Shown: positions 31,416 through 46,668 of the stretch, in pieces
How the letters are laid out: each line of letters begins with the position of its first letter
How positions within the stretch are numbered: position 1 is the first letter of the stretch
DNA from: an uncultured Eubacteriales bacterium
GTDB taxonomy: Bacteria; Bacillota; Clostridia; Peptostreptococcales; Anaerovoracaceae
Length of the DNA stretch: 64,000 bases
Assembly (NCBI GenBank): GCA_902773665.1
Contig: CACYFF010000008.1
Span: forward strand, 1-64,000
Direction of reading: 5' to 3'
The notes under the pieces: generated by a model
Told to the model about the DNA's origin: nothing
Database searches by the model: none
The model's input: only the letters and a program-made list of their open reading frames with translations
Made by a program: the position numbers and the translations under genes

Positions 31416-32216
31416 TTACTTTCTTTCGAAGAACTTCTTCAGGATGTCGGAATTCTCCGCGAAATCGGGTGTACCGACGGCTTCCCAGGACTTGCGGACG
31501 ATCTCCTTCACCTCGCCCAGCTTCATATCCAGTGCGGTGCTCTTGATCTTGGCGGGTCCGATGAGGCAACCTCTGCGGAAGCGCTCGGGATAATCTGCCC
31601 ACTTCTTGCCCTTCTCCTCCAGCATCTTCTTGATCGTCTCGGGGTTCTTTCCTTCGACTTCCTTCGCGCCGAATTCCGCAGCGCCGGCCAGCTGTACGCT
31701 GTTGGCAGCGGCTTCCTGCTGGCACCACAGGATATAGTTGCGGACTTCCCAGATGTCGGGCAGGCAGAACGCACGGCTGTCGAAGGCGGCGGTCCACTGC
31801 TTCGATCCGTAGATCTTGTCCAGTTCCACGTCGTGGAGCTTGGAGACTTCTTCGGCGAAGGCCTTGTTGAAGGCCAGGGTCGCCATGGAGGCGGACAGCG
31901 CTACCATCTTGTTGACGCAGCCGTCGCACCAGCTCTCGGTCTTGTCATCTTCCGTAACGTCGTTCAGCACCAGGGAAATCTTATCGGACTGGGTATAGGC
32001 AAAGACGACGCCGGAGATCTGCTGGCACAGATCCTGCGCAGTCTTCATCATGCAGCGGGAGAACAGATCGTCGAAGGGCTGCTCAAATCCTTTGCAGAAA
32101 CCGGCGCCGCCTTTCATGTCCAGACGGATGACTTTCGGCGTGCGCAGGGTGAGCCAGTTCTTGGTGACGGTCTCATATTGCTTCATTCTATCGCGAAGCG
32201 TAAGTGCTTTGCTCAT
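31416..32216 (-). CDS. Thg1-like protein with altered active-site motifs
   Basis: 266 residues related to tRNA(His) guanylyltransferase and bacterial Thg1-like 3'-5' polymerases. Family features: RDRMKQYETVTKNWLTLRTP, VIRLD, GFEQPFDD, YTQSDKISLVL and AFDSRAFCLPDIWEVRNYI. Key positions differ from the usual enzymes: the Gly after the first metal Asp (RxDG) is Met, the SDE triad is SDK, and the WRQQDATRNS segment reads WCQQEAAANS. Two metal-binding Asp residues remain. The start is the ATG at 32216 with GAGAGGA upstream. A changed or lost nucleotidyl-transfer activity is plausible (inference). It stands alone between the aro operon and a terminator. Confidence 0.75.
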   Translation of the reverse strand: MSKALTLRDRMKQYETVTKNWLTLRTPKVIRLDMKGGAGFCKGFEQPFDDLFSRCMMKTAQDLCQQISGVVFAYTQSDKISLVLNDVTEDDKTESWCDGCVNKMVALSASMATLAFNKAFAEEVSKLHDVELDKIYGSKQWTAAFDSRAFCLPDIWEVRNYILWCQQEAAANSVQLAGAAEFGAKEVEGKNPETIKKMLEEKGKKWADYPERFRRGCLIGPAKIKSTALDMKLGEVKEIVRKSWEAVGTPDFAENSDILKKFFERK

Positions 32217-32294
32217 GTTGGATCCTCTCTTTCGGTTATTGGGAAATTTACATACGTACAGTTTACCACAGATCAAAGACCCTGTGTTGCTGTT

Positions 32295-32732
32295 TTACGC
32301 TTTTCCGTACTTCTCCTTCAGATAGATCATGGCCTGCCGGTAGCCGTCGATCCCCTGTCCTGCAATGCGTTTTTCGCAGGCCATGCCGGCGTAGGAGATC
32401 TGACGGAAATCCTCCCGGTTGTCCACGTCGGAGATGTGTACCTCCACCGCAGGGATGGAGACGGCCTTGAGCGCATCCAGAATGGCGATGCTGGTGTGGG
32501 TATAGGCAGCCGGATTGATGACGATGCCGTCGGTCTTCCCGTAAGCTTCCTGGATCCGGTCGACGATGGCACCTTCGTGGTTGGACTGGAAGCACTCGGC
32601 CTCCAGACCTTCCTCTTCCGCTATTTTAGCCACCAGATCCAGCAGTGCCTGGTAGTTCTGCGTGCCGTAGACACCGGGTTCCCGGATGCCCAGCATATTG
32701 ATGTTCGGTCCGTTGATGATAAGGATCTTCAT
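32295..32732 (-). CDS. aroQ: 3-dehydroquinate dehydratase, type II
   Basis: Dehydrates 3-dehydroquinate to 3-dehydroshikimate. 145 residues, typical for the dodecameric type II enzyme. Seen: INGPNINMLGIREPGVYG with the catalytic Tyr and flexible-loop Arg, SNHEGAIVDRIQ, INPAAYTHTSIA with the catalytic His, and VEVHISDVDNRE. The start is the ATG at 32732 with an AGGTG site; the frame upstream runs through a structured repeat. Last gene of the aro operon. Confidence 0.96.
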   Translation of the reverse strand: MKILIINGPNINMLGIREPGVYGTQNYQALLDLVAKIAEEEGLEAECFQSNHEGAIVDRIQEAYGKTDGIVINPAAYTHTSIAILDALKAVSIPAVEVHISDVDNREDFRQISYAGMACEKRIAGQGIDGYRQAMIYLKEKYGKA

Positions 32733-32755
32733 GTTATAGCACCTATGATATTCCT

Positions 32756-32834
32756 CGGGGTCCTGTCGCAAGGCAACCTTCCCCATCCCTTGCGCTTACG
32801 CGCCGGGCGGGGCCCCTTCCTTCGCGCCACCCCT
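32756..32834. repeat. 79-bp structured intercistronic repeat, copy 1
   Basis: Same sequence as 44186-44264 in the same orientation, with 6 mismatches over 79 positions and no gaps by my alignment. On the transcribed (minus) strand it contains GGGGCCCCGCCCGGC and a GCGC-GTAA-GCGC hairpin with a GNRA-type tetraloop. The ends GGGGT/ACCCC can pair. It fills the gap between the aroE/K stop (12 nt away) and the aroQ start. No frame in it is supported as coding. Confidence 0.85.
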
Positions 32835-32845
32835 CGGATCAATCT

Positions 32846-34102
32846 CTAAAAATGTAAAATATCCTTTGCAGCAGATTCTACTGAATCATTATTATAAATA
32901 ATATAATCGGCGTATTTCTCGTATAACAGCTTTCGCTCTACATAAATCTGATTTATGTCTTTTGACAGCGAGATCGGCCGCCCTTCTTTTGCAAGCAGAG
33001 CCAGATCCCTTTGGATCCAGACGATGCGGCCGTTCTGGTGCAGCAGCGGGTAGTTCTCCGGACGGGTCACGCAGCCGCCTCCGGTAGAAAGGATGACCCC
33101 AGACAGTTTCCCCAGGTCCGCCAGCACTTCTGTCTCTATTTTGCGGAAACTCTCCTCCCCACCTTCGGCGAAGATCTCGGGAATGAGCTTACCCGTCCGC
33201 CTTTCGATCTCCTCGTCCGCGTCGTACAGAGGCCTGTTGGTCCGCTTTGCCAGCTCCTTCGCCACGGAAGTCTTGCCGCAGCCGGGCATGCCGATGAGGA
33301 CGATGTTTTCCTGCCGGTCTTTCAGAAGATCGTAGATGCGCTGCACGTCTGCCGCCGACTGCAGCGGATCCATGGCCGGATGGGCCGGGTCATCCGCGGT
33401 AAAGACGCGGCTCGCCGCTTCCGCCTGCGCCACCAGCATGTACAGACCGCCGAAAGCAGGCACGTCCAGTTCCTCCGCCTGCAGCATCAGGGCTGTTCTG
33501 GCTGGATTATAGACGATGTCGAACAGGGCCTTCAGGCGGGGAAAAGCCTTCAGATCCAGGGGTTTTGCGCCGTTGCCGGGATACATGCCCACAGGCGTCG
33601 TGTTGACGATGAGCTCCGCATCTTCGTGTTTCTGCAGATTCTCGTAATTGTCTGCGCCGCTGCGGGAGATAACGACGGTCTCCCCCGCCCCCAGGTCCTC
33701 CAACACGGCCTTTACCGTTACCGAGGCGCCGCCGCTGCCGAGGACCAGGCATTTGCAGCCCTTGACGGAAACGCGGCTCTTCTTTACAAGGGCGAGAAAG
33801 CCGGCATAGTCCGTGTTGTCGCCGTAGAGGATGCGGCTGCCGTCTTCCGCGGTGCGCACGGCGATCGTGTTGACGCTGCCCAGCTTACGCGCCGCCGGAC
33901 TCAGCTTCGTGCACAGCGCCGCCGCCGTCTTTTTATAGGGGATCGTAACGTTCAGGCCGTCGAATTCCCCATGGCGAAGAAAGACCTCCGCCTCCGCAGG
34001 GGTCTTCTCGTACAGTGCGTATTCGTAATCGCCCAGCAGGGCGTGGATCTCGGGAGAATAGCTGTGCCCCAGTTTTTCCCCCAGCAATCCGCATTTGCGC
34101 AT
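32846..34102 (-). CDS. Shikimate dehydrogenase - shikimate kinase fusion
   Basis: 418-residue bifunctional protein. Residues 1 to about 255 are AroE: MRKCGLLGEKLGHSYSPEIH, the catalytic-Lys region LNVTIPYKKTA, VLGSGGASVTV for NADP and FDIVYNPARTALM. Residues about 258-418 are AroK: P-loop LIGMPGCGKTSVAKEL, DADEEIERRTG, the segment EESFRKIE, STGGGCVTR and the lid region EGRPISL. It thus performs two consecutive steps, dehydroshikimate to shikimate to shikimate-3-phosphate. It starts 9 nt after pheA with GGAGGAGACC. This order of fusion is uncommon but the domains are complete. Confidence 0.95.
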   Translation of the reverse strand: MRKCGLLGEKLGHSYSPEIHALLGDYEYALYEKTPAEAEVFLRHGEFDGLNVTIPYKKTAAALCTKLSPAARKLGSVNTIAVRTAEDGSRILYGDNTDYAGFLALVKKSRVSVKGCKCLVLGSGGASVTVKAVLEDLGAGETVVISRSGADNYENLQKHEDAELIVNTTPVGMYPGNGAKPLDLKAFPRLKALFDIVYNPARTALMLQAEELDVPAFGGLYMLVAQAEAASRVFTADDPAHPAMDPLQSAADVQRIYDLLKDRQENIVLIGMPGCGKTSVAKELAKRTNRPLYDADEEIERRTGKLIPEIFAEGGEESFRKIETEVLADLGKLSGVILSTGGGCVTRPENYPLLHQNGRIVWIQRDLALLAKEGRPISLSKDINQIYVERKLLYEKYADYIIYNNDSVESAAKDILHF

Positions 34103-36291: not shown

Positions 36292-37580
36292 ACTCTCTGT
36301 AAACTCCCTAGATCTTCCCAAAACGCCGGATAGGATTTCGAGACGCAGTCCGGCTGATCGACCGTCACCGCTTGTTCGCACCGGCAGACGGCAACGGCTG
36401 CCGCCATGGCGATGCGGTGGTCACCGAAGGGATCGACGGTGCCGCCTTTCAGCATACGCTGACCCCGTATCCTCATGCCGTCCGGGAACTCCTCCGTCTC
36501 CGCCCCCAGCGCGCGAAGCATGGCCGAAGTGCTGCGGATGCGGTCGGATTCTTTCAGCCGCAGACGCGCCGCGTTTACGATGCGGGTCTCCCCTTCGCTC
36601 AGAGCAGCGACGACCGATAACGCCGGCACTGCGTCCGGGATCTGGGAGGCATCGATCTCCGTGCCCTTCAGAACGCCTTTCTGCACCAGGATGCCTTCTT
36701 CTGTGCGGGAGACTTTCGCACCGAACCGCTCCAGCACATCCAGCGCTTTTTTATCGCCCTGGGCGGAAGCAGGATCCAGTCCTTTTACCAGGATCCCTTC
36801 TTCGCTGAACGCACCCATGCAGAGGTAAAACGTCGCGGAGGAATAGTCCCCTTCGGCCTGCAGGCTTTCCGGCAAAGCGTATTTCTGTCCGCCGTTTACC
36901 GTCCACTGCAGTCCGTCCTTCTCAAAGACGATGCCGCTCTGCCGCAGGACCGCCTCCGTCATATCGATGTACGGCTTAGACTCTGGCGTACCCACTACCT
37001 GCAGTCTGCTTTGCCCCTGTAAGGCTCCAAATGCCATCAGGAGCCCCGAAATAAACTGGGAGGATATATTTCCCGGTAAAACATAATCGCCGGCTGTAAG
37101 CCGTCCTGAGACCTTCAGACGGTCTCCTTCCTGCTTCAGGGTCATGCCGTGCGCCGCCAGCTGTTCGCCGTACTCCGCCAGAGGCCGTTTCGAAAGCCTG
37201 CCCTGCATCACGAAGGTGCAGTCGGCACCCAAAAGGCCTGCGACAGGAAGCAGAAAGCGCAGCGTGGAGCCGCTTTCGCCGCAGTCCAGTTCCACGCCGG
37301 ATGGACTACTGCTCCGGTCCAGAGGGCTTACATGCAGAACGCTCTGCGGACCGTCTTCCGAGACCGTTATCTTCGCGCCAAGCGCGTTCAGGCAGCGCAC
37401 CGTCGCCGCGATATCCTCCGAAAGGCCGCGGTACGAGATCGCCACAGGACGCTCTCCCAGCGCCGCGCAGATCAGCAGCCTGTGCAGCTGCGATTTGCTG
37501 GAAGGTACCTGCAGGGTGCCGATGCGGACACCGGGCTGCAGAACGACCGTATTCTGTTGTCTTACGACGCTGTCTACCAT
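36288..37580 (-). CDS. aroA: 3-phosphoshikimate 1-carboxyvinyltransferase (EPSP synthase)
   Basis: 430 residues. Seen: VPSSKSQLHRLLICAAL for phosphoshikimate/PEP binding, DCGESGSTLRFLLPVAGL, LPGNISSQFISGLLMA, RLKESDRIRSTSAMLRALG and DHRIAMAAAVA. It transfers enolpyruvyl from PEP to shikimate-3-phosphate. It overlaps aroB by 7 nt and aroC by 4 nt. The DCGESGSTLRF region contains the glycine positions that distinguish glyphosate-sensitive class I from class II enzymes; I do not assign a class. Confidence 0.96.
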   Translation of the reverse strand: MVDSVVRQQNTVVLQPGVRIGTLQVPSSKSQLHRLLICAALGERPVAISYRGLSEDIAATVRCLNALGAKITVSEDGPQSVLHVSPLDRSSSPSGVELDCGESGSTLRFLLPVAGLLGADCTFVMQGRLSKRPLAEYGEQLAAHGMTLKQEGDRLKVSGRLTAGDYVLPGNISSQFISGLLMAFGALQGQSRLQVVGTPESKPYIDMTEAVLRQSGIVFEKDGLQWTVNGGQKYALPESLQAEGDYSSATFYLCMGAFSEEGILVKGLDPASAQGDKKALDVLERFGAKVSRTEEGILVQKGVLKGTEIDASQIPDAVPALSVVAALSEGETRIVNAARLRLKESDRIRSTSAMLRALGAETEEFPDGMRIRGQRMLKGGTVDPFGDHRIAMAAAVAVCRCEQAVTVDQPDCVSKSYPAFWEDLGSLQRV

Positions 37581-38695
37581 GCCAGTCCCGCCTCGATCCA
37601 GTCCTGAAGATCCTTCGTTTCGATGCGGACGAGTTCGCAGTTTCCGATGCTGCGGGGCACCACCAGGTCTATGGCGTACTGCGACGACTTCTTGTCCGAC
37701 ATGGCTGCCTCCGCCAGCTGTTGCGCCGGGTACGCTGTAGTCACGGGCAGTCCGTACAGCTGCAGCGTCTCCTCGAGCAGGCGGGCATCCGCCTCGTCCA
37801 TATAGCCTTTGCGCACGGCCGCTCTCGCCATAATGGCCATCCCTGCCGCAACAGCGCTGCCGTGGGACTGCCCGTAATGGCTGCAGTGTTCGATGGCATG
37901 GCCGAAAGTGTGACCCAGATTGAGCTTCTTACGCTCGCCCCGGTCGAATTCGTCCTGTTCCACCACGTTCCGCTTGAAGGAAACGCAGGTCTCGATGATC
38001 TCCTCCAGATCCTTCGCCAGTTTCTGCTTCAGGCTCTGCCCGGTGCGATCAGTCTCCGCCAGTGCCTTCAATTTCAGGAAGAAGTCCCGGTCGTACAGCA
38101 CGCCGTATTTGATGACTTCGGCACAGCCGTCCCGGAACACATCGTCCGGCAGCGTTTTGAGCGTCAGCGGGTCACAGAGGACCAGCGACGGCTGGCAGAA
38201 CGCCCCGGCCAGATTTTTGCCTGCGGGCAGGTCGATCGCCGTCTTGCCGCCCACGGAGGAATCCACCATGGCCAGCAGCGTCGTGGGGATCTGCACGTAG
38301 GAGATGCCGCGCAGATAGGTCGCAGCGGCAAAGCCCGCCATGTCACCCGTCACGCCGCCGCCCAGGGCTACCAGACAGTCTTCGCGGGTGAGCCGGTTCT
38401 CCGCCAGGAACGCCAGGATCTCCGCATAGTGCCCGATGTTCTTGTTTTGTTCTCCGGGCTCCAGAATGTACTGCGCACAGGATAGCCCCGCATCCCACAG
38501 ATCGCCTTCCACCGGTCCTCCGTGGGGAACAAAAGCGTTTCCGTCGCAGACGACAGCAGCTTTGACGGCCTTCGGGCAGACCTTTGCGGTCTCTTCTCCC
38601 GCATAGGACAGGATGCCCTCCCGGATCAGGATATCGTAGCCCTTACCTACATTCACGTGCACGCAGCGGGTCTTCTGCGTCTTCTTACCTGCCAT
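37574..38695 (-). CDS. aroB: 3-dehydroquinate synthase
   Basis: NAD- and metal-dependent cyclase making 3-dehydroquinate from DAHP. 373 residues. Seen: ALGGGVTGDMAGFAAATYLRG, QIPTTLLAMVDSSVGGKTAI, LPAGKNLAGAFCQPSLV, the metal-site segment AEVIKYGVLYD and LNLGHTFGHAIEH. The start ATG (38695) overlaps tyrA by 11 nt; the frame upstream is tyrA's other frame. Confidence 0.97.
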   Translation of the reverse strand: MAGKKTQKTRCVHVNVGKGYDILIREGILSYAGEETAKVCPKAVKAAVVCDGNAFVPHGGPVEGDLWDAGLSCAQYILEPGEQNKNIGHYAEILAFLAENRLTREDCLVALGGGVTGDMAGFAAATYLRGISYVQIPTTLLAMVDSSVGGKTAIDLPAGKNLAGAFCQPSLVLCDPLTLKTLPDDVFRDGCAEVIKYGVLYDRDFFLKLKALAETDRTGQSLKQKLAKDLEEIIETCVSFKRNVVEQDEFDRGERKKLNLGHTFGHAIEHCSHYGQSHGSAVAAGMAIMARAAVRKGYMDEADARLLEETLQLYGLPVTTAYPAQQLAEAAMSDKKSSQYAIDLVVPRSIGNCELVRIETKDLQDWIEAGLAW

Positions 38696-39518
38696 CCACT
38701 TCCGCCTTCTTTCTGCGGCCCTCGTCCAGCAGCCGGATGAGTTCCTCCCGGTCCCCGGTTTCCAGCGCATAGCGGTATTCTTCCATGCTCTCCATAAACC
38801 AGTCGATCTCCTTCAGCAGATTGTCCCGGTTCTCCAGGAACAGCTCTGCCCACATGCCGGGGTTCAGCCAGGCGACGCGGGTCATGTCCTTGTAGCTGCC
38901 GGCAGAGAAACCCTTGTGCATCGCCGCCGTATCGCTCTTGATGTAGGCGTTGGACACCACGTGGGCCATCTGGGACGTAAAAGCGATCATCTCGTCGTGT
39001 TTGTCCGCCGTCGTAAAGGAAAAGCGCCCGAATCCCGCGGGCTTCAGCAGTTCCTCCGTCCTGCCCAGCAGGTTTACGTCGTCCGCATCCATCGGCACCA
39101 GCACCATGGGGGCATTGTGGTACAGGTTCGCCCGGGCGTATTTAAAGCCGGAGTATTGGGTGCCGGCCATGGGATGACCGCCCACAAAGTGAAAACCGTA
39201 CTCCTCCGCCACCGGGAACAGCGCTTCGCACACCGCCCGCTTCGTGCCGCAGCAGTCGATGACGATTGGCTTTTTGCCGAAATGCGGCGCCATGCGTTTG
39301 ACCCATTCGATGGCAGCCTCCGGATAAATGGTGACCAGCACCAGATCGCAGCTGCCCACGTTCTCCTGGGTCAGTTCCCCGTCCACGGCTCCGCTGATCC
39401 TGGCAAAGTCCAGGACGGACGCTGTGCGGTTGCAGGCCAGCACTTCCCAGCCCGCCTCTTTGTATGCCTTGGCAAAGGAGCCTCCGATGAGGCCCAGGCC
39501 CACGATGCCGCAGATCAT
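38685..39518 (-). CDS. tyrA: Prephenate dehydrogenase
   Basis: NAD-dependent oxidative decarboxylation of prephenate to 4-hydroxyphenylpyruvate, the Tyr branch. 277 residues: N-terminal Rossmann motif GIVGLGLIGGSFAKAY, substrate-site GGHPMAGTQYSGF, then a helical dimerisation domain. No C-terminal ACT domain, unlike pheA, so Tyr feedback on this enzyme is less evident. ATG at 39518 overlaps the aroF stop (ATGA). Confidence 0.95.
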   Translation of the reverse strand: MICGIVGLGLIGGSFAKAYKEAGWEVLACNRTASVLDFARISGAVDGELTQENVGSCDLVLVTIYPEAAIEWVKRMAPHFGKKPIVIDCCGTKRAVCEALFPVAEEYGFHFVGGHPMAGTQYSGFKYARANLYHNAPMVLVPMDADDVNLLGRTEELLKPAGFGRFSFTTADKHDEMIAFTSQMAHVVSNAYIKSDTAAMHKGFSAGSYKDMTRVAWLNPGMWAELFLENRDNLLKEIDWFMESMEEYRYALETGDREELIRLLDEGRRKKAEVDGR

Positions 39519-40516
39519 TGTACGATCTCCCGGATCTGGCGCACCTTGCCCATCAAAGCATCGAATTCCTCCGGCTTTAAGGACTGGGCGCCGTCGCACA
39601 GCGCGTGCATCGGGTCGTTGTGGACTTCTATGATCAGTCCGTCGCAGCCGCTGGCCGTGGCCGCCATGGCCATGGGAGGCACGAGCCTTGCGATGCCGGT
39701 CGCGTGGCTGGGATCCACGATGATGGGAAGATGGGTGAGTTCCCGCAGCATGGAGACCGCCGCCAGGTCCAGCGTATTTCTTGTGTAGTCATCGAAGGTA
39801 CGGATGCCGCGTTCGCAGAGGATCACCTTCTCGTTGCCGCCCGCCATGATGTATTCGGCACTCATCAGCAGTTCTTTCAGGGTATTGGCGAGACCTCTCT
39901 TCAGCAGGATGGGCTTATCCAGCTTGCCGACGGCCTTCAGCAGCTCGTAATTCTGCATGTTGCGGGCGCCGATCTGGATGACGTCCACATTCTCGAACAG
40001 AGGCAGGTCGTCCACGCCCATGCACTCCGTTACCAGAGGCAGTCCCGTCTCCTGCTTTGCGATCTCCAGCAGGCGCAAGCCTTCGCCGCGCAGTCCCTGG
40101 AAGTCGTAGGGCGAAGTTCTGGGCTTGAAGGCGCCGCCCCGGAGCATGTCCGCGCCGGACGCTTTTACGGCTTTTGCCACGGTCACGATCTGTTCCTCTG
40201 TCTCCACGGAGCAGGGTCCTGCGATGACCACGAAATTGCCCTTGCCGATCTTCACATCCCCCACTTCCACGATGGTGTCGTCGGGATGGAACTTGCGGTT
40301 GCTCTTCTTGAACGGATCCGTGATCCGCTTGACGGAATCCACGATGCCCAGGGATTCGATCAGATCCATGTCCACCTGGGTGGTGTCGCCCACCAGGCCC
40401 AGCACGGTCTGATAATCGCCCTGGGAGATATGTACGGTAAGACCCTGCTGCTTGAGCCATTCCACCAGCTGGTCTCTCTTTTCGTCCTGTACGTTATGCT
40501 TCAATACTACGATCAT
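39515..40516 (-). CDS. aroF: 3-deoxy-7-phosphoheptulonate (DAHP) synthase, type I-beta
   Basis: First enzyme of the shikimate pathway, joining PEP and erythrose-4-phosphate. 333 residues: an N-terminal ferredoxin-like regulatory domain (MIVVLKHNVQDEKRDQLVEW) and a catalytic barrel with VIAGPCSVETEEQIV, GADMLRGGAFKPRTSPY, ILLKRGLANTLKE, ILCERGIRTFDDYTRNT and VDPSHATG. The N-terminal domain is the one that gives Tyr/Phe feedback inhibition in Thermotoga-type enzymes. AAAGGAG precedes the ATG. The gene follows the Phe/Tyr-rich leader and attenuator-like terminator. Confidence 0.97.
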   Translation of the reverse strand: MIVVLKHNVQDEKRDQLVEWLKQQGLTVHISQGDYQTVLGLVGDTTQVDMDLIESLGIVDSVKRITDPFKKSNRKFHPDDTIVEVGDVKIGKGNFVVIAGPCSVETEEQIVTVAKAVKASGADMLRGGAFKPRTSPYDFQGLRGEGLRLLEIAKQETGLPLVTECMGVDDLPLFENVDVIQIGARNMQNYELLKAVGKLDKPILLKRGLANTLKELLMSAEYIMAGGNEKVILCERGIRTFDDYTRNTLDLAAVSMLRELTHLPIIVDPSHATGIARLVPPMAMAATASGCDGLIIEVHNDPMHALCDGAQSLKPEEFDALMGKVRQIREIVQ

Positions 40517-40581
40517 TGGTAAATACTCCTTTAACCTTATAAGTATACCTGAAATCTTCCGGATATGATACTGCAGGGATA

Positions 40582-40619
40582 CAAAGAAAAGCGGTCCTGC
40601 ACGAAGCAGGACCGCTTTT
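40582..40619 (-). terminator. Attenuator-type terminator in the aro operon leader
   Basis: A perfect 14-bp stem (40587-40600 with 40606-40619), 5-nt loop, then TTTTCTTTG on the minus strand. It lies 24 nt after the stop codon of the Phe/Tyr-rich leader ORF and 66 nt before the aroF start. The only gene it could end upstream is the leader ORF itself. Confidence 0.9.
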
Positions 40620-40642
40620 GGACTTGTATCTCTTCCGGCAGT

Positions 40643-40765
40643 CTATGCTCGCGCAGCGTCTATGGGAAAGGCACCGTAAAAGTAGCCTCCGAAATAGAAG
40701 CCAAAGAAAGCATCATAAAAGAAGCCGGAAACTGCGCTGTAGAGTGTCTTGCTATTTTTGTTCAT
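40643..40765 (-). CDS. Phe/Tyr-rich leader peptide of the aro operon (attenuation)
   Basis: 40-codon ORF with its own promoter and an excellent ribosome site (AAAGGAG, 9-nt spacing to the ATG at 40765). Residues 15-33 read FFYDAFFGFYFGGYFYGAF; the whole peptide has 8 Phe and 5 Tyr, no Trp, no His. Directly after its TAG comes a strong intrinsic terminator, then aroF. This is the layout of classical ribosome-mediated attenuators such as enterobacterial pheL. The codons match the two end products made by the downstream operon. The segment just after the stop (40633-40641) can pair with the 5' UTR (40782-40790) or with leader codons 12-14 (40724-40730), giving alternative folds. The peptide itself has no recognised homologue; a small hydrophobic membrane peptide is the alternative. 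Confidence 0.8.
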   Translation of the reverse strand: MNKNSKTLYSAVSGFFYDAFFGFYFGGYFYGAFPIDAARA

Positions 40766-40800
40766 CGTCTCTGACTCCTTTCTGCCGAAATTATGGATAT

Positions 40801-40829
40801 ACGATAGCACTTTCGTTTTGTTTCGTCAA
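40801..40829 (-). promoter_or_regulatory. Promoter of the aro operon leader
   Basis: Minus strand: -35 TTGACG (40824-40829), 17-bp spacer, -10 TATCGT (40801-40806) with TGC just before it. Transcription would begin near 40794, giving a leader of about 210 nt when terminated. Confidence 0.8.
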
Positions 40830-42918: not shown

Positions 42919-44154
42919 CTATTCGTATCTTTCGTCGATCACGCGCTTCGTCTTCTTTTCGCTTCTGGGCAGCAGGCCGATCTCCACGACCTTGACGAGC
43001 GGTGTAAAGCCGATCTTGCCTTTGACGGTGGCAGCGATGCGGTCCGCCAGCTCCAGGAAGTTGACGGAGCCGTTCGTCTCCACGTACAGACGCATGGTAT
43101 CCTTGCCGTCCAGGTGGGAGATGCGGATCTGGTATTCGCTGGACACTTCGGGGAAGCCGGCCAGGATCTCCTCGATCTGGCTGGGGAATACGTTGACGCC
43201 CTTGATCTTCATCATGTCGTCGCTGCGGCCCATGATCGTATCCAGCCGCGGGAATTTACTGCCGCAAGGGCATTCTCCGGGGATGATCCGGGACAGGTCG
43301 TGGGTCCGGTAGCGGATGAGCGGCGCCCCTTCCTTGACGAGCGTCGTAATGACGACCTCGCCCATCTCGCCGTCGGGAACGGGCTTTCCCGTGACGGGAT
43401 CGATGATCTCGATGTACAGATAGTCGTCCCAGTAGTGCATACCGGTCTCATACTGGCAGTTGATGCCGATGCCGGGTCCGTAGATCTCCGTAAGACCGTA
43501 GATGTCGTACAGTTCGATGCCCAGGGATTCGGCAATGCGTTTTCTCATCTTTTCGCCCCAGCGTTCGGAACCGATGACGCCCTTCTTCAGCTTGATCTTA
43601 TCCTTGATGCCGCGTTTTTCGATCTCTTCCGCCAGCAGCAGCGCGTAGGACGAAGTGGAGCACAGAACGGTGCTTCCCATGTCCATCATCATCTGCAGCT
43701 GCTTTTCCGTGTTGCCCGGGCCCATGGGGATGACCATGGCACCCAGCTTTTCCGCGCCGTACTGGAAGCCGATGCCGGCGGTCCACAGACCGTAGCCCGG
43801 CGTGATCTGGATGCGGTCACGGTTCGTGATGCCCGCCATCTCGTAGCAGCGCTTGAACATGATGCCCCAGTCGTCCACGTCCTTCGCGGTATAGGGGATG
43901 ATGACGGGAAGACCCGTAGTGCCGGAAGAAGAATGGATGCGTACGATCTGCTCTTCCGGGGCGGTCATGAGGCCCAGCGGATAGGCTTCCCGCAGGTCTG
44001 CCTTCTCGGAAAAAGGCAGTTTTTCGAAATCTTCCGGCGTTTCAATGGAATCGAATCCGGCTTCCGCCAGTTTTTTGCCGTAGAAGCTGCCGGCTTTTAC
44101 CAGCGCGCCGATCTGTTTGTTGACCTGTTCGATCTGTGCTTTTGAGATCTGCAT
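42919..44154 (-). CDS. Phenylacetate-CoA ligase-like (aryl-CoA ligase)
   Basis: 411 residues of the PaaK adenylate-forming family. Seen: the phosphate-binding loop RIHSSSGTTGLPVIIPYT, YGLTEIYGPGIG, a Cys pair in GECPCGSK as in many PaaK proteins, LDTIMGRSDDMMKIKGVNVFPS and a C-terminal AMP-binding subdomain with Lys in KKTKRV. It forms or uses aryl-acetyl-CoA with ATP/AMP. It follows iorA-iorB, which make aryl-acetyl-CoA from aryl pyruvates, so in an anaerobe the pair could release aryl acids with ATP gain or run in reverse (inference). AAAGGAC site. Confidence 0.88.
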   Translation of the reverse strand: MQISKAQIEQVNKQIGALVKAGSFYGKKLAEAGFDSIETPEDFEKLPFSEKADLREAYPLGLMTAPEEQIVRIHSSSGTTGLPVIIPYTAKDVDDWGIMFKRCYEMAGITNRDRIQITPGYGLWTAGIGFQYGAEKLGAMVIPMGPGNTEKQLQMMMDMGSTVLCSTSSYALLLAEEIEKRGIKDKIKLKKGVIGSERWGEKMRKRIAESLGIELYDIYGLTEIYGPGIGINCQYETGMHYWDDYLYIEIIDPVTGKPVPDGEMGEVVITTLVKEGAPLIRYRTHDLSRIIPGECPCGSKFPRLDTIMGRSDDMMKIKGVNVFPSQIEEILAGFPEVSSEYQIRISHLDGKDTMRLYVETNGSVNFLELADRIAATVKGKIGFTPLVKVVEIGLLPRSEKKTKRVIDERYE

Positions 44155-44185
44155 ACGATGTCCTTTCTAGTTTTGAGGCGCCCTC

Positions 44186-44264
44186 CGGGGTCCTGTCGCA
44201 GGGCACTCTTCCCCATCTCTTGCGCTTACGCGCCGGGCGGGGCCCCTTCCCTTGCGCCACCCCT
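44186..44264. repeat. 79-bp structured intercistronic repeat, copy 2
   Basis: Second copy of the element at 32756-32834, same orientation, 73 of 79 positions identical by my alignment. Here the flanks extend the terminal stem (GCGCCC at the left end, GGGCGT at the right). It begins 13 nt after the iorB stop and ends 32 nt before the paaK-like start, the same placement as copy 1. Confidence 0.85.
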
Positions 44265-44276
44265 TTGGGCGTCTTC

Positions 44277-44846
44277 TTAATCAAAATAACAGAATGCCTT
44301 TTTATTGAGGTCTAAGAATTTGGGAGGAACGTTGTCTTCGATCGCGAAGAGCATGCTTTCTTTTTTGAGGCCCAGCGCGTCCGCGTGGAATGCGGCACTC
44401 AGAAGAAGAAGGTTCAGCACTTTGGAAGAGCGCAGTTCTTCGAAGGCCTTCTCGACTTCCACGATCTGCAGATGGGTCACATACTCCTGTAAATACCGCC
44501 TCATCAGAGAAGGATCGTAGCCGCCGCCAAGGCTGGCCGTTACGGGCATTACGGCGCGGTCCGCCGCGATGACCCTTCCATCTTTCTTCAGATAGGGCAG
44601 CTGCCGAACGGCCTCTCCCAGTTCGAAGCCCAGGATGAGGTCTGCCTCTCCGAGCCCGATCATGGGAGTGTTCACCCCTTCTCCGATGCGGATGTGGGAA
44701 AACACGCTGCCGCCGCGCTGGGCCATGCCGATGGTCTCGGCGCTCTGCACGGGAAGTCCTTCTTTCATGGCTGCCGCGGAGATGAGGCGCGACGCCAGGA
44801 CGGTGCCCTGTCCGCCGACACCGCACAGGATGATATTCTTACTCAT
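44277..44846 (-). CDS. iorB: Indolepyruvate:ferredoxin oxidoreductase, beta subunit
   Basis: 189 residues of the gamma-type 2-oxoacid oxidoreductase domain: NIILCGVGGQGTVLASRLIS at the N-terminus, ETIGMAQRGGSVFSHIRIG and ADLILGFELGEAVRQL. With IorA it oxidatively decarboxylates aryl pyruvates to aryl-acetyl-CoA and reduces ferredoxin. The ATG at 44846 overlaps the iorA stop by 8 nt (ATGAGTAA). Confidence 0.95.
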   Translation of the reverse strand: MSKNIILCGVGGQGTVLASRLISAAAMKEGLPVQSAETIGMAQRGGSVFSHIRIGEGVNTPMIGLGEADLILGFELGEAVRQLPYLKKDGRVIAADRAVMPVTASLGGGYDPSLMRRYLQEYVTHLQIVEVEKAFEELRSSKVLNLLLLSAAFHADALGLKKESMLFAIEDNVPPKFLDLNKKAFCYFD

Positions 44847-46668
44847 GGCGAGCCTCCTTTCCCGCAGGTGCGATGGCACTGACTGGGCACAGCTGGCTGC
44901 AAAGCCCGCAGCCGGTACACTGCCCTTCGTCGATGACAGCTCGTCCGTCTGCAAAGGTCAGTGCCGGGCAGCCGATCTCATCGATGCAGGTGCGGCAGCC
45001 GATGCAGGCGTCCTCATCCACAGCGCATTTGCCTGCCGGTTTTGCGATCGCGATGCAGGGCGAACGGAAGATGATCGCCTTGACGCCCTGCTGCGCTGCC
45101 ACGCGCTTTATGCAGGCGACAGCAGCTTCGTGATCCAATGGATCCACGGTCTCCACGCAGGTCAGGCCGATGCCCTTCAGCACGCTTTCGATGCTGATGG
45201 CCGGCACGTTCTCCCCCATCATGGTCCGGCCGGTGCCGGGATGAGGCTGGTGACCTGTCATGGCCGTGGTGGAATTGTCCAGAACGACCAGCGTAAAGTC
45301 CGCCTGATTGAATACCCCGTTGATGACGGACGGGATCGCCGAAGCGAAGAACGTGGAATCGCCCACGAAGGCGAAGCAGCTCGTATCCGGTTCTGTATGG
45401 AACACGCCCTGGGCGATACCGAGACCGGCGCCCATGCACAGGCAGGTATCCACCATATCCAAAGGCATCGCGTTTCCGAGGGTATAGCAGCCGATATCGC
45501 CGCAGTAGATCGACTTTTTCCCCTTCATGGCCTGTTTGACCGCGTAGAACGAAGCCCGGTGCGGGCATCCTGCACATAACACGGGAGGACGCACCGGAAG
45601 CGGCGGGAGATCGAGGGAACTGCCTTCCGTCAGTTTCTTTTCCAGGAAAGCCGCGACGGTCTTTTTGACGCTGTCCACGGTATTTTCGCCGGCGGACGGC
45701 GTATCGCCCGTCAGTTTGCCGCGAATCTTTACGTGCAAGCTGTGTTTGCCGCACAGATACGCCAGTTCCCGCTCGATGACGGGATCCAGTTCCTCAAGAC
45801 AGAGGACTTCATCCAGGCCTTCCAGGAACTGCAGCGCCAGTTCTTCGGGGAACGGGAACGGCGTTCCGACCTTGAGCAGGCGGACGTTTCCCAGTTCTTT
45901 GAGGGCTTCCCTTGCATAGGTATAACTGATGCCGCCCGCCGCGATGCCTTTGCGGCAACCGGCGTTCGCGTCGGTTTCCGCTTCGATGCGGTTGAACCGC
46001 AGCTGCGAAAACTCCGCCGTCAGAGCGGCGTTTCTCTTTTCGATCCGCTGGTGGTTCGCGAAGGATGCTCTGGGGAAGATGACCCATTTCTTCGTATCTT
46101 TGATAAACCCTTCCGGTCTATGGGAAACGTATTCCGCTGCGTCTTTTACGTCGATGGACGCATAGCCGTGGGAAACTCTCGTCGTAGGCCGCACAAAGAC
46201 CGGCGTGCCGTACTTTTCGGACAGCGCAAAGGCTTCTTCCATCATGTTGTAGGCTTCCTGCGCCGTGGACGGGTCAAAGCAAGGAACCTTGGAGAACCGC
46301 GCAAAGCTGCGGGTATCCTGTTCCGTCTGCGAACTGATGGGACCCGGGTCATCCGCGACGAGAACGACCATGCCGCCCTTTACGCCCACATATTCGACGC
46401 ACATCAACGGATCTGACGCCACGTTCAGTCCCATCTGCTTCATGGTGACCAGCACGCGGCTGCCCGCATAAGCGGCGCCAGCTGCCACTTCCATGGCGGT
46501 CTTTTCGTTGATGGACCATTCCACATAACAATCCTGCGGTCTGTGCTTCGCCACCGTTTCGAGCACCTCCGTGGAAGGTGTGCCGGGGTAGCCGCATACC
46601 AGGTCGACCCCGGCAGCGATCGCACCCATGGCGATGGCTTCGTTGCCCATTAAGAATTCTTTATGCAA
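44839..46668 (-). CDS. iorA: Indolepyruvate:ferredoxin oxidoreductase, alpha subunit
   Basis: 609 residues: N-terminal pyrimidine-binding domain (AAGVDLVCGYPGTPSTEVLE), central TPP-binding domain (CAGCPHRASFYAVKQAM, GDIGCYTLG, FVGDSTFFASAIP...VVLDNSTTAMTGHQ) and two C-terminal 4Fe-4S clusters (CIGCRTC...C and CTGCGLCSQLC). Oxygen-sensitive, so the host is an anaerobe. It begins with TTG at 46668: GAGGTG lies 8 nt upstream, whereas the first ATG six codons in has no site. Confidence 0.95.
   Translation of the reverse strand: MHKEFLMGNEAIAMGAIAAGVDLVCGYPGTPSTEVLETVAKHRPQDCYVEWSINEKTAMEVAAGAAYAGSRVLVTMKQMGLNVASDPLMCVEYVGVKGGMVVLVADDPGPISSQTEQDTRSFARFSKVPCFDPSTAQEAYNMMEEAFALSEKYGTPVFVRPTTRVSHGYASIDVKDAAEYVSHRPEGFIKDTKKWVIFPRASFANHQRIEKRNAALTAEFSQLRFNRIEAETDANAGCRKGIAAGGISYTYAREALKELGNVRLLKVGTPFPFPEELALQFLEGLDEVLCLEELDPVIERELAYLCGKHSLHVKIRGKLTGDTPSAGENTVDSVKKTVAAFLEKKLTEGSSLDLPPLPVRPPVLCAGCPHRASFYAVKQAMKGKKSIYCGDIGCYTLGNAMPLDMVDTCLCMGAGLGIAQGVFHTEPDTSCFAFVGDSTFFASAIPSVINGVFNQADFTLVVLDNSTTAMTGHQPHPGTGRTMMGENVPAISIESVLKGIGLTCVETVDPLDHEAAVACIKRVAAQQGVKAIIFRSPCIAIAKPAGKCAVDEDACIGCRTCIDEIGCPALTFADGRAVIDEGQCTGCGLCSQLCPVSAIAPAGKEARHE

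What the first reader, a model, noticed from the sequence alone, without database searches (positions are those of the whole stretch)
40582..40829. Phe/Tyr-codon leader peptide attenuator controlling an entire aromatic amino acid operon
Seen: promoter, strong ribosome site, a 40-codon ORF with 13 of its codons Phe or Tyr (8 and 5) clustered at 40667-40723, its stop codon, a perfect 14-bp terminator with T tract 24 nt later, then aroF and seven more pathway genes. Also seen: the segment just after the leader stop (40633-40641) can pair over 9 bp with the 5' UTR at 40782-40790 or over 7 bp with leader codons at 40724-40730. These pairings exclude each other. Known: enterobacterial pheL/pheA uses ribosome stalling at Phe codons. 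Firmicutes usually use T-boxes or TRAP-like systems for aromatic amino acids, so a dual Phe/Tyr leader peptide in a clostridial host would be new or little described. Inference: low charged tRNA-Phe or tRNA-Tyr stalls the ribosome and allows readthrough into aroF. I could not identify a clear antiterminator that masks the terminator 5' arm.
Basis: partly seen in the sequence, partly recalled or inferred. Interest (0 to 1): 0.88.

Follow-up and report, generated by a model that had tools for sequence, protein, structure and literature searches.

The report
Phe/Tyr leader-peptide switch of aro operon
Upstream of a gut clostridium's eight-gene operon for making phenylalanine and tyrosine lies a tiny gene packed with Phe and Tyr codons whose translation probably decides whether RNA polymerase stops early; the same kind of switch precedes this operon in many Clostridia, and its codons match the amino acids the operon makes.

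Summary
Ribosome-mediated transcription attenuation holds up and is better supported. (1) 96 of 154 aroF upstream regions carry a short ORF with a ribosome site and at least 7 Phe/Tyr in 15 residues; shuffles give 0.1, the reverse strand 0. (2) The missing antiterminator is GACUGC (40643-40638), overlapping the leader stop, pairing with GCGGUC (40615-40610) in the terminator 5' arm. Across 72 relatives this pairing is specific to each locus's own terminator (Wilcoxon 6.6e-13), the competing upstream pairing also (3e-7), a control pairing not (0.91). In the window it is only 6 bp and weakly supported alone. (3) Leader composition follows operon content: Tyr-rich before aroF-tyrA, Phe-rich before most aroF-pheA operons without tyrA, mixed where both occur, as here (genus level p=1.6e-4). 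No Rfam family matches. Classical attenuation is known, also in Firmicutes, and a Phe-uORF motif before Acholeplasma aroF is published; I found no description of this clostridial family. Nothing was tested at the bench.

The parts
40824..40829 (-). promoter -35 (TTGACG)
   Evidence: consensus only
40801..40809 (-). extended -10 (TGC TATCGT), predicted start near 40794
   Evidence: consensus only
40782..40790 (-). 5' UTR segment UUUCGGCAG; alternative partner of the post-stop segment (9 bp, one G-U); only about 5 bp kept in L003
40775..40781 (-). ribosome binding site AAAGGAG of the leader
40643..40765 (-). leader peptide ORF, 40 codons, 8 Phe + 5 Tyr
   Evidence: conserved kind in 96 of 154 loci
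40667..40723 (-). Phe/Tyr codon run (12 of the 13 aromatic codons): proposed stall region
40724..40735 (-). segment 1 GCAGUUUCCGGC (codons Ala11-Gly14), just before the aromatic run; its GCAGUU (40735-40730) pairs with segment 2 GACUGC, its UUCCGGC with 40639-40633
   Evidence: GCAGUU/C kept in L001-L003
40638..40643 (-). segment 2 core GACUGC (antiterminator 5' arm), begins in the stop codon; further pairing from 40650
40610..40615 (-). segment 3 core GCGGUC in the terminator 5' arm, partner of segment 2
40587..40619 (-). intrinsic terminator hairpin (14 bp, loop UUCGU), followed by CUUUG
39515..40516 (-). aroF, DAHP synthase, first gene of the operon
   Evidence: NF006421, TIGR01361
38685..39599 (-). 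tyrA, prephenate dehydrogenase (true start probably further in)
37574..38770 (-). aroB
   Evidence: TIGR01357
36288..37580 (-). aroA
   Evidence: TIGR01356
35269..36381 (-). aroC
   Evidence: TIGR00033
34112..35254 (-). pheA, chorismate mutase-prephenate dehydratase
32846..34102 (-). aroE-aroK fusion, shikimate dehydrogenase + shikimate kinase
32295..32786 (-). aroQ, type II dehydroquinase
   Evidence: PF01220

Best explanation
A classical ribosome-mediated transcription attenuator. RNA polymerase starts near 40794 and a ribosome translates the leader. When charged tRNA-Phe and tRNA-Tyr are plentiful the ribosome runs to the stop codon and covers segment 2 (GACUGC, which overlaps the stop), so the terminator 40619-40587 forms and the eight aro/phe/tyr genes are not transcribed. 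When either charged tRNA is scarce the ribosome stalls in the Phe/Tyr run, covers or opens the upstream partners of segment 2, and segment 2 pairs with the terminator 5' arm (GCGGUC); polymerase reads through. Without translation, segment 2 is held by upstream sequence and termination is the default. Shown by sequence and comparison: leader, terminator, locus-specific pairing 2:3 and 1:2 across relatives, and match of codon content to operon content. Inferred: translation, stalling, termination, readthrough, and the exact pairing in the window.
For: Conservation of leaders in 96 of 154 aroF upstream regions against 0.1 in shuffles and 0 on the reverse strand (sequences). Own-terminator specificity of segment 2:3 in 72 loci, 93% in the expected direction, Wilcoxon 6.6e-13, permutation 5e-5; segment 1:2 Wilcoxon 3.2e-7; control 1:3 p 0.91. 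Helices of up to 17 positions whose sequence differs between loci while pairing is kept, many overlapping or following the leader stop codon. Nascent-RNA folding with a ribosome masked at the Phe/Tyr codons raises antiterminator occupancy over ribosome-at-stop in 57 of 72 and over no ribosome in 63 of 72. In the window the 2:3 core has probability 0.05 with no ribosome, mean 0.44 and maximum 0.98 over aromatic codons in the run, 0.00 at the stop. Median Tyr fraction of the leader 0.75 before aroF-tyrA operons without pheA, 0.50 where both are present, about 0.1 before four of seven aroF-pheA(dehydratase) operons without tyrA; genus-level exact p 1.6e-4; genome G020 has a 7F:1Y leader before aroF-aroA-aroC-pheA and a 4Y:2F leader before aroF-tyrA.
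Against: The window's own 2:3 helix is 6 bp (plus 5 bp beyond a small loop) and ranks only 19th of 72 in the own-terminator test; its energy does not beat shuffles (p 0.24). 9 of 40 synonymous recodings of the leader gave at least as large a response in folding. In one search, with a longer 5' end and total occupancy instead of the core helix, the window shows no clear contrast (stop 0.36, stalled about 0.05-0.39). Two genus-mates (L004, L027) lack leader and promoter altogether. Relatives are not independent. No transcript or expression data.
Confidence: 0.9

Rival explanations
1. Nascent-chain arrest: the peptide itself, sensing free Phe or Tyr, stalls the ribosome (as TnaC does for tryptophan).
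For: A short hydrophobic leader; a 'FAAE-YYYY-FFF-T' pattern recurs in part of the family.
Against: Outside the aromatic run the peptide is not conserved, Phe and Tyr replace each other freely, length runs from about 16 to 55 residues, and the 'FAA' codons coincide with segment 1, an RNA constraint. The Phe/Tyr ratio follows the operon's product.
Confidence: 0.05
2. The short ORF is an independent small gene with its own terminator, and aroF is driven by a second promoter downstream (TATACT 40547-40542; TATAAT in L003).
For: A -10-like hexamer just upstream of the aroF ribosome site is present in all three genus-mates with the leader.
Against: No acceptable -35 for it (the scan finds only the leader promoter); the ORF is found before aroF across genera without peptide conservation; own-terminator pairing would be unexplained. 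A weak second promoter could coexist and give basal expression.
Confidence: 0.03
3. A T-box or another tRNA- or protein-binding leader controls the terminator and the ORF is incidental.
For: T-boxes are common in Firmicutes and the genome has three T-box matches, one above the cut-off.
Against: None of them is here; Rfam finds nothing convincing at the locus at gathering or relaxed thresholds. One of the three T-box matches lies before a seryl-tRNA synthetase-like gene (my reading of the translation).
Confidence: 0.02

Closest known systems
Enterobacterial pheA (pheL) and pheST attenuators (Rfam Phe leader)
   Same: Phe-codon leader peptide, mutually exclusive antiterminator and terminator, same logic (own knowledge of these systems).
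   Different: Leader rich in both Phe and Tyr, before an operon for the whole pathway; no Rfam match.
uORFC-13-1 motif, Acholeplasma aroF (PMC8632094)
   Same: Short ORF with at least one Phe codon and a terminator directly upstream of aroF; attenuation proposed.
   Different: Described only for Acholeplasma and unplaced environmental sequences, 24 examples, Phe only; I could not compare the alignments directly.
His and branched-chain leader attenuators of Firmicutes (PMC2965389, PMC9413887, PMC5794164)
   Same: Same mechanism class in Firmicutes, including C. difficile his (predicted) and S. aureus ilv-leu with genetic evidence.
   Different: Other amino acids and operons.
E. coli aroF-tyrA leader (Camakaris 1980, as cited in PMC2659441)
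   Same: Attenuation sensing tRNA-Tyr listed for an aroF-tyrA operon.
   Different: Proteobacterial; I have not compared the sequences.

Membership tests
Classical ribosome-mediated transcription attenuator (functional class) | short ORF with ribosome site, rich in codons of the operon's end products | tested here: met
   translation itself not shown
Classical ribosome-mediated transcription attenuator (functional class) | intrinsic terminator between leader and first gene | tested here: met
   found in 88 of 90 relatives
Classical ribosome-mediated transcription attenuator (functional class) | antiterminator excluding the terminator, and a protector excluding the antiterminator | tested here: met
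   met for the family; for the window alone present but weak
Classical ribosome-mediated transcription attenuator (functional class) | starvation-dependent readthrough, lost on codon replacement | not testable with these tools
   needs reporter or RNA experiments
Rfam leader families incl. Phe leader and T-box | covariance model score above gathering threshold | tested here: not met
uORFC-13-1 motif (PMC8632094) | match to its consensus model | not tested
   only the text description was compared

The most novel reading that the evidence does not exclude
A widespread but undescribed family of aromatic leader peptides is a common control of aroF operons in Clostridia and neighbouring Bacillota, and its codon content is re-tuned in evolution to what the operon and host make: Tyr-rich before aroF-tyrA, Phe-rich before aroF-pheA, mixed for both, with Trp codons mostly in genomes that also have trpE.
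Probability: 0.65. Interest if true: 0.65.

Novelty: new member of a known kind. Interest (0 to 1): 0.58.

Why it matters
Control of aromatic amino acid operons in gut and rumen Clostridia is little described. Here about a hundred aroF loci appear to be under leader-peptide attenuation, with antiterminators that fit their own terminators. The match between leader codons and operon content across about fifteen genera is a natural experiment for the idea that such leaders read tRNA charging codon by codon, and it predicts from a short sequence which amino acid should limit which operon.

Tried and rejected
T-box and other Rfam families: no match here. Energy of segment 2:3 against shuffled sequence: weak (23 of 88 at p<0.05), because composition and long internal loops blur it; replaced by the own-versus-foreign terminator test. 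First ribosome-mask folding for the window with an arbitrary 5' end gave no contrast; repeated from the predicted start and scoring the core helix, which does, but a synonymous-codon control (9 of 40) shows it is not decisive alone. The 9-bp 5' UTR pairing as the key switch: shrinks in L003. Trp codons versus trpE: associated (genus-level Fisher p 0.024, table compiled by hand) but confounded by lineage, with exceptions both ways; kept as a hint only. First translation of the leader used the wrong frame. Paper searches found no description of this family; Lopatovskaya et al. 2010 (Mol Biol 44:128, cited in PMC4833913) may bear on it and could not be read.

Full report
What is there. On the minus strand a promoter (TTGACG-17-TATCGT with extended TG, 40829-40801) is followed by a ribosome site and a 40-codon ORF, 40765-40643, MNKNSKTLYSAVSGFFYDAFFGFYFGGYFYGAFPIDAARA. 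Eight Phe and five Tyr codons; twelve of them lie in 40723-40667. After the UAG stop comes a perfect 14-bp terminator (40619-40587, -25.3 kcal/mol), and 126 nt after the stop aroF. The operon continues with tyrA, aroB, aroA, aroC, pheA, an aroE-aroK fusion and aroQ, that is the whole route to prephenate and both branches.

More than chance. I collected aroF loci from relatives. With a fixed rule (ATG, ribosome site, 10-60 codons, at least 7 Phe/Tyr in 15 residues) 96 of 154 upstream regions have such an ORF; shuffled regions give 0.1 of 154 and the reverse strand none; the next best amino-acid pair is Phe/Ser with 47, presumably on the same ORFs. Named carriers include Angelakisella massiliensis, Bittarella massiliensis, Papillibacter cinnamivorans and Clostridium ganghwense. 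Peptides are not alike apart from the aromatic run, and Phe and Tyr exchange freely, so codon content rather than peptide sequence is kept.

The antiterminator. In relatives a segment at or just after the leader stop pairs with the terminator 5' arm, for example GUAAUUUGUGCUGC with GCCGCACAGAUUAC in L079 (both 5'-3', one mismatch), and the same segment pairs with codons before or in the aromatic run (folds). I tested this by asking whether each locus's segment pairs better with its own terminator than with those of the other loci, after removing row and column means. For 72 non-identical loci 93% do (Wilcoxon 6.6e-13; permutation 5e-5); the upstream competitor pairing is also own-specific (3.2e-7); the control pairing between the upstream region and the terminator arm is not (0.91). 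Relatedness makes foreign pairs look better, which works against the result, but loci are not independent and the p-values are nominal. In the window the best helix by the same search is GACUGC (40643-40638) with GCGGUC (40615-40610), identical in L001 and L003, while GCAGUU/GCAGUC before the aromatic run can take GACUGC away. This helix is short and, on its own, not better than chance.

Polarity. Masking a ribosome at the aromatic codons in the nascent RNA raises pairing of the terminator arm with upstream sequence over ribosome-at-stop in 57 of 72 loci and over no ribosome in 63 of 72. For the window, from the predicted start 40794, the 2:3 core has probability 0.05 without ribosome, 0.05-0.98 (mean 0.44) with stalls at aromatic codons in the run, 0.00 with the ribosome at the stop. 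9 of 40 synonymous recodings respond as strongly, so part of this follows from geometry alone.

Composition follows the operon. I read gene content downstream of leaders. Leaders before aroF-tyrA operons without pheA have a median Tyr fraction of 0.75 (n 11), before operons with both 0.50 (n 41), before operons with pheA but no tyrA 0.44 (n 14); in this last group five are at 0.08-0.12, and those in which only the chorismate mutase domain was detected are mostly 0.5-0.67. tyrA-only against pheA-without-tyrA: p 4e-5; tyrA-only against both: 4e-6; both against pheA-without-tyrA: 0.07. With one value per genus and the pheA-with-dehydratase group (plus L166, whose contig ends early) the separation is complete, p 1.6e-4; this grouping by dehydratase was made after seeing the data. 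In genome G020 a 7F:1Y leader precedes aroF-aroA-aroC-pheA and a 4Y:2F leader precedes aroF-tyrA. The window, with both branches, has 8 Phe and 5 Tyr. trpE was not found in the window's genome or in any of seven genus-mates, which fits the absence of Trp codons, with the caveat of incomplete genomes.

What it is. By these results it works as a classical ribosome-mediated attenuator; the functional proof is missing. It is not a member of any Rfam leader family. Leader-peptide attenuation in Firmicutes is known or predicted for his (PMC2965389; PMC9413887) and ilv-leu (PMC5794164), and a Phe uORF before Acholeplasma aroF is published as uORFC-13-1 (PMC8632094). I found no account of a Phe/Tyr family in Clostridia in ten searches of an open-access library, which is not proof that none exists. 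I therefore call it a new member of a known kind, with unusual breadth and a useful internal test of its logic.

Noticed in passing
L004 and L027 (genus-mates G004, G002): Leader, promoter and terminator are absent; aroF directly abuts the upstream gene, and in L027 aroF also lacks about 70 N-terminal residues. Natural loss of the attenuator, or assembly error.
   Followed up: partly
window 40542-40547: TATACT (TATAAT in L003) just upstream of the aroF ribosome site: possible weak second promoter after the attenuator.
   Followed up: no
window genome and seven genus-mates: No trpE found although a full chorismate pathway is present in the window.
   Followed up: partly
window 42919-46668: Genes resembling a phenylacetate-CoA ligase (42919-44154) and an indolepyruvate:ferredoxin oxidoreductase alpha subunit (44839-46668) lie upstream of the aro operon (domains; names are my reading); possible arylacetate salvage.
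   Followed up: no
window 31416-32276: Thg1-like tRNA-His guanylyltransferase gene just downstream of aroQ, uncommon in bacteria.
   Followed up: no
L136-L148, L154, L156: Leaders of more distant Bacillota usually contain Trp codons as well (e.g. FSWGYYFFSAGYYFW in L154), mostly in genomes with trpE.
   Followed up: partly
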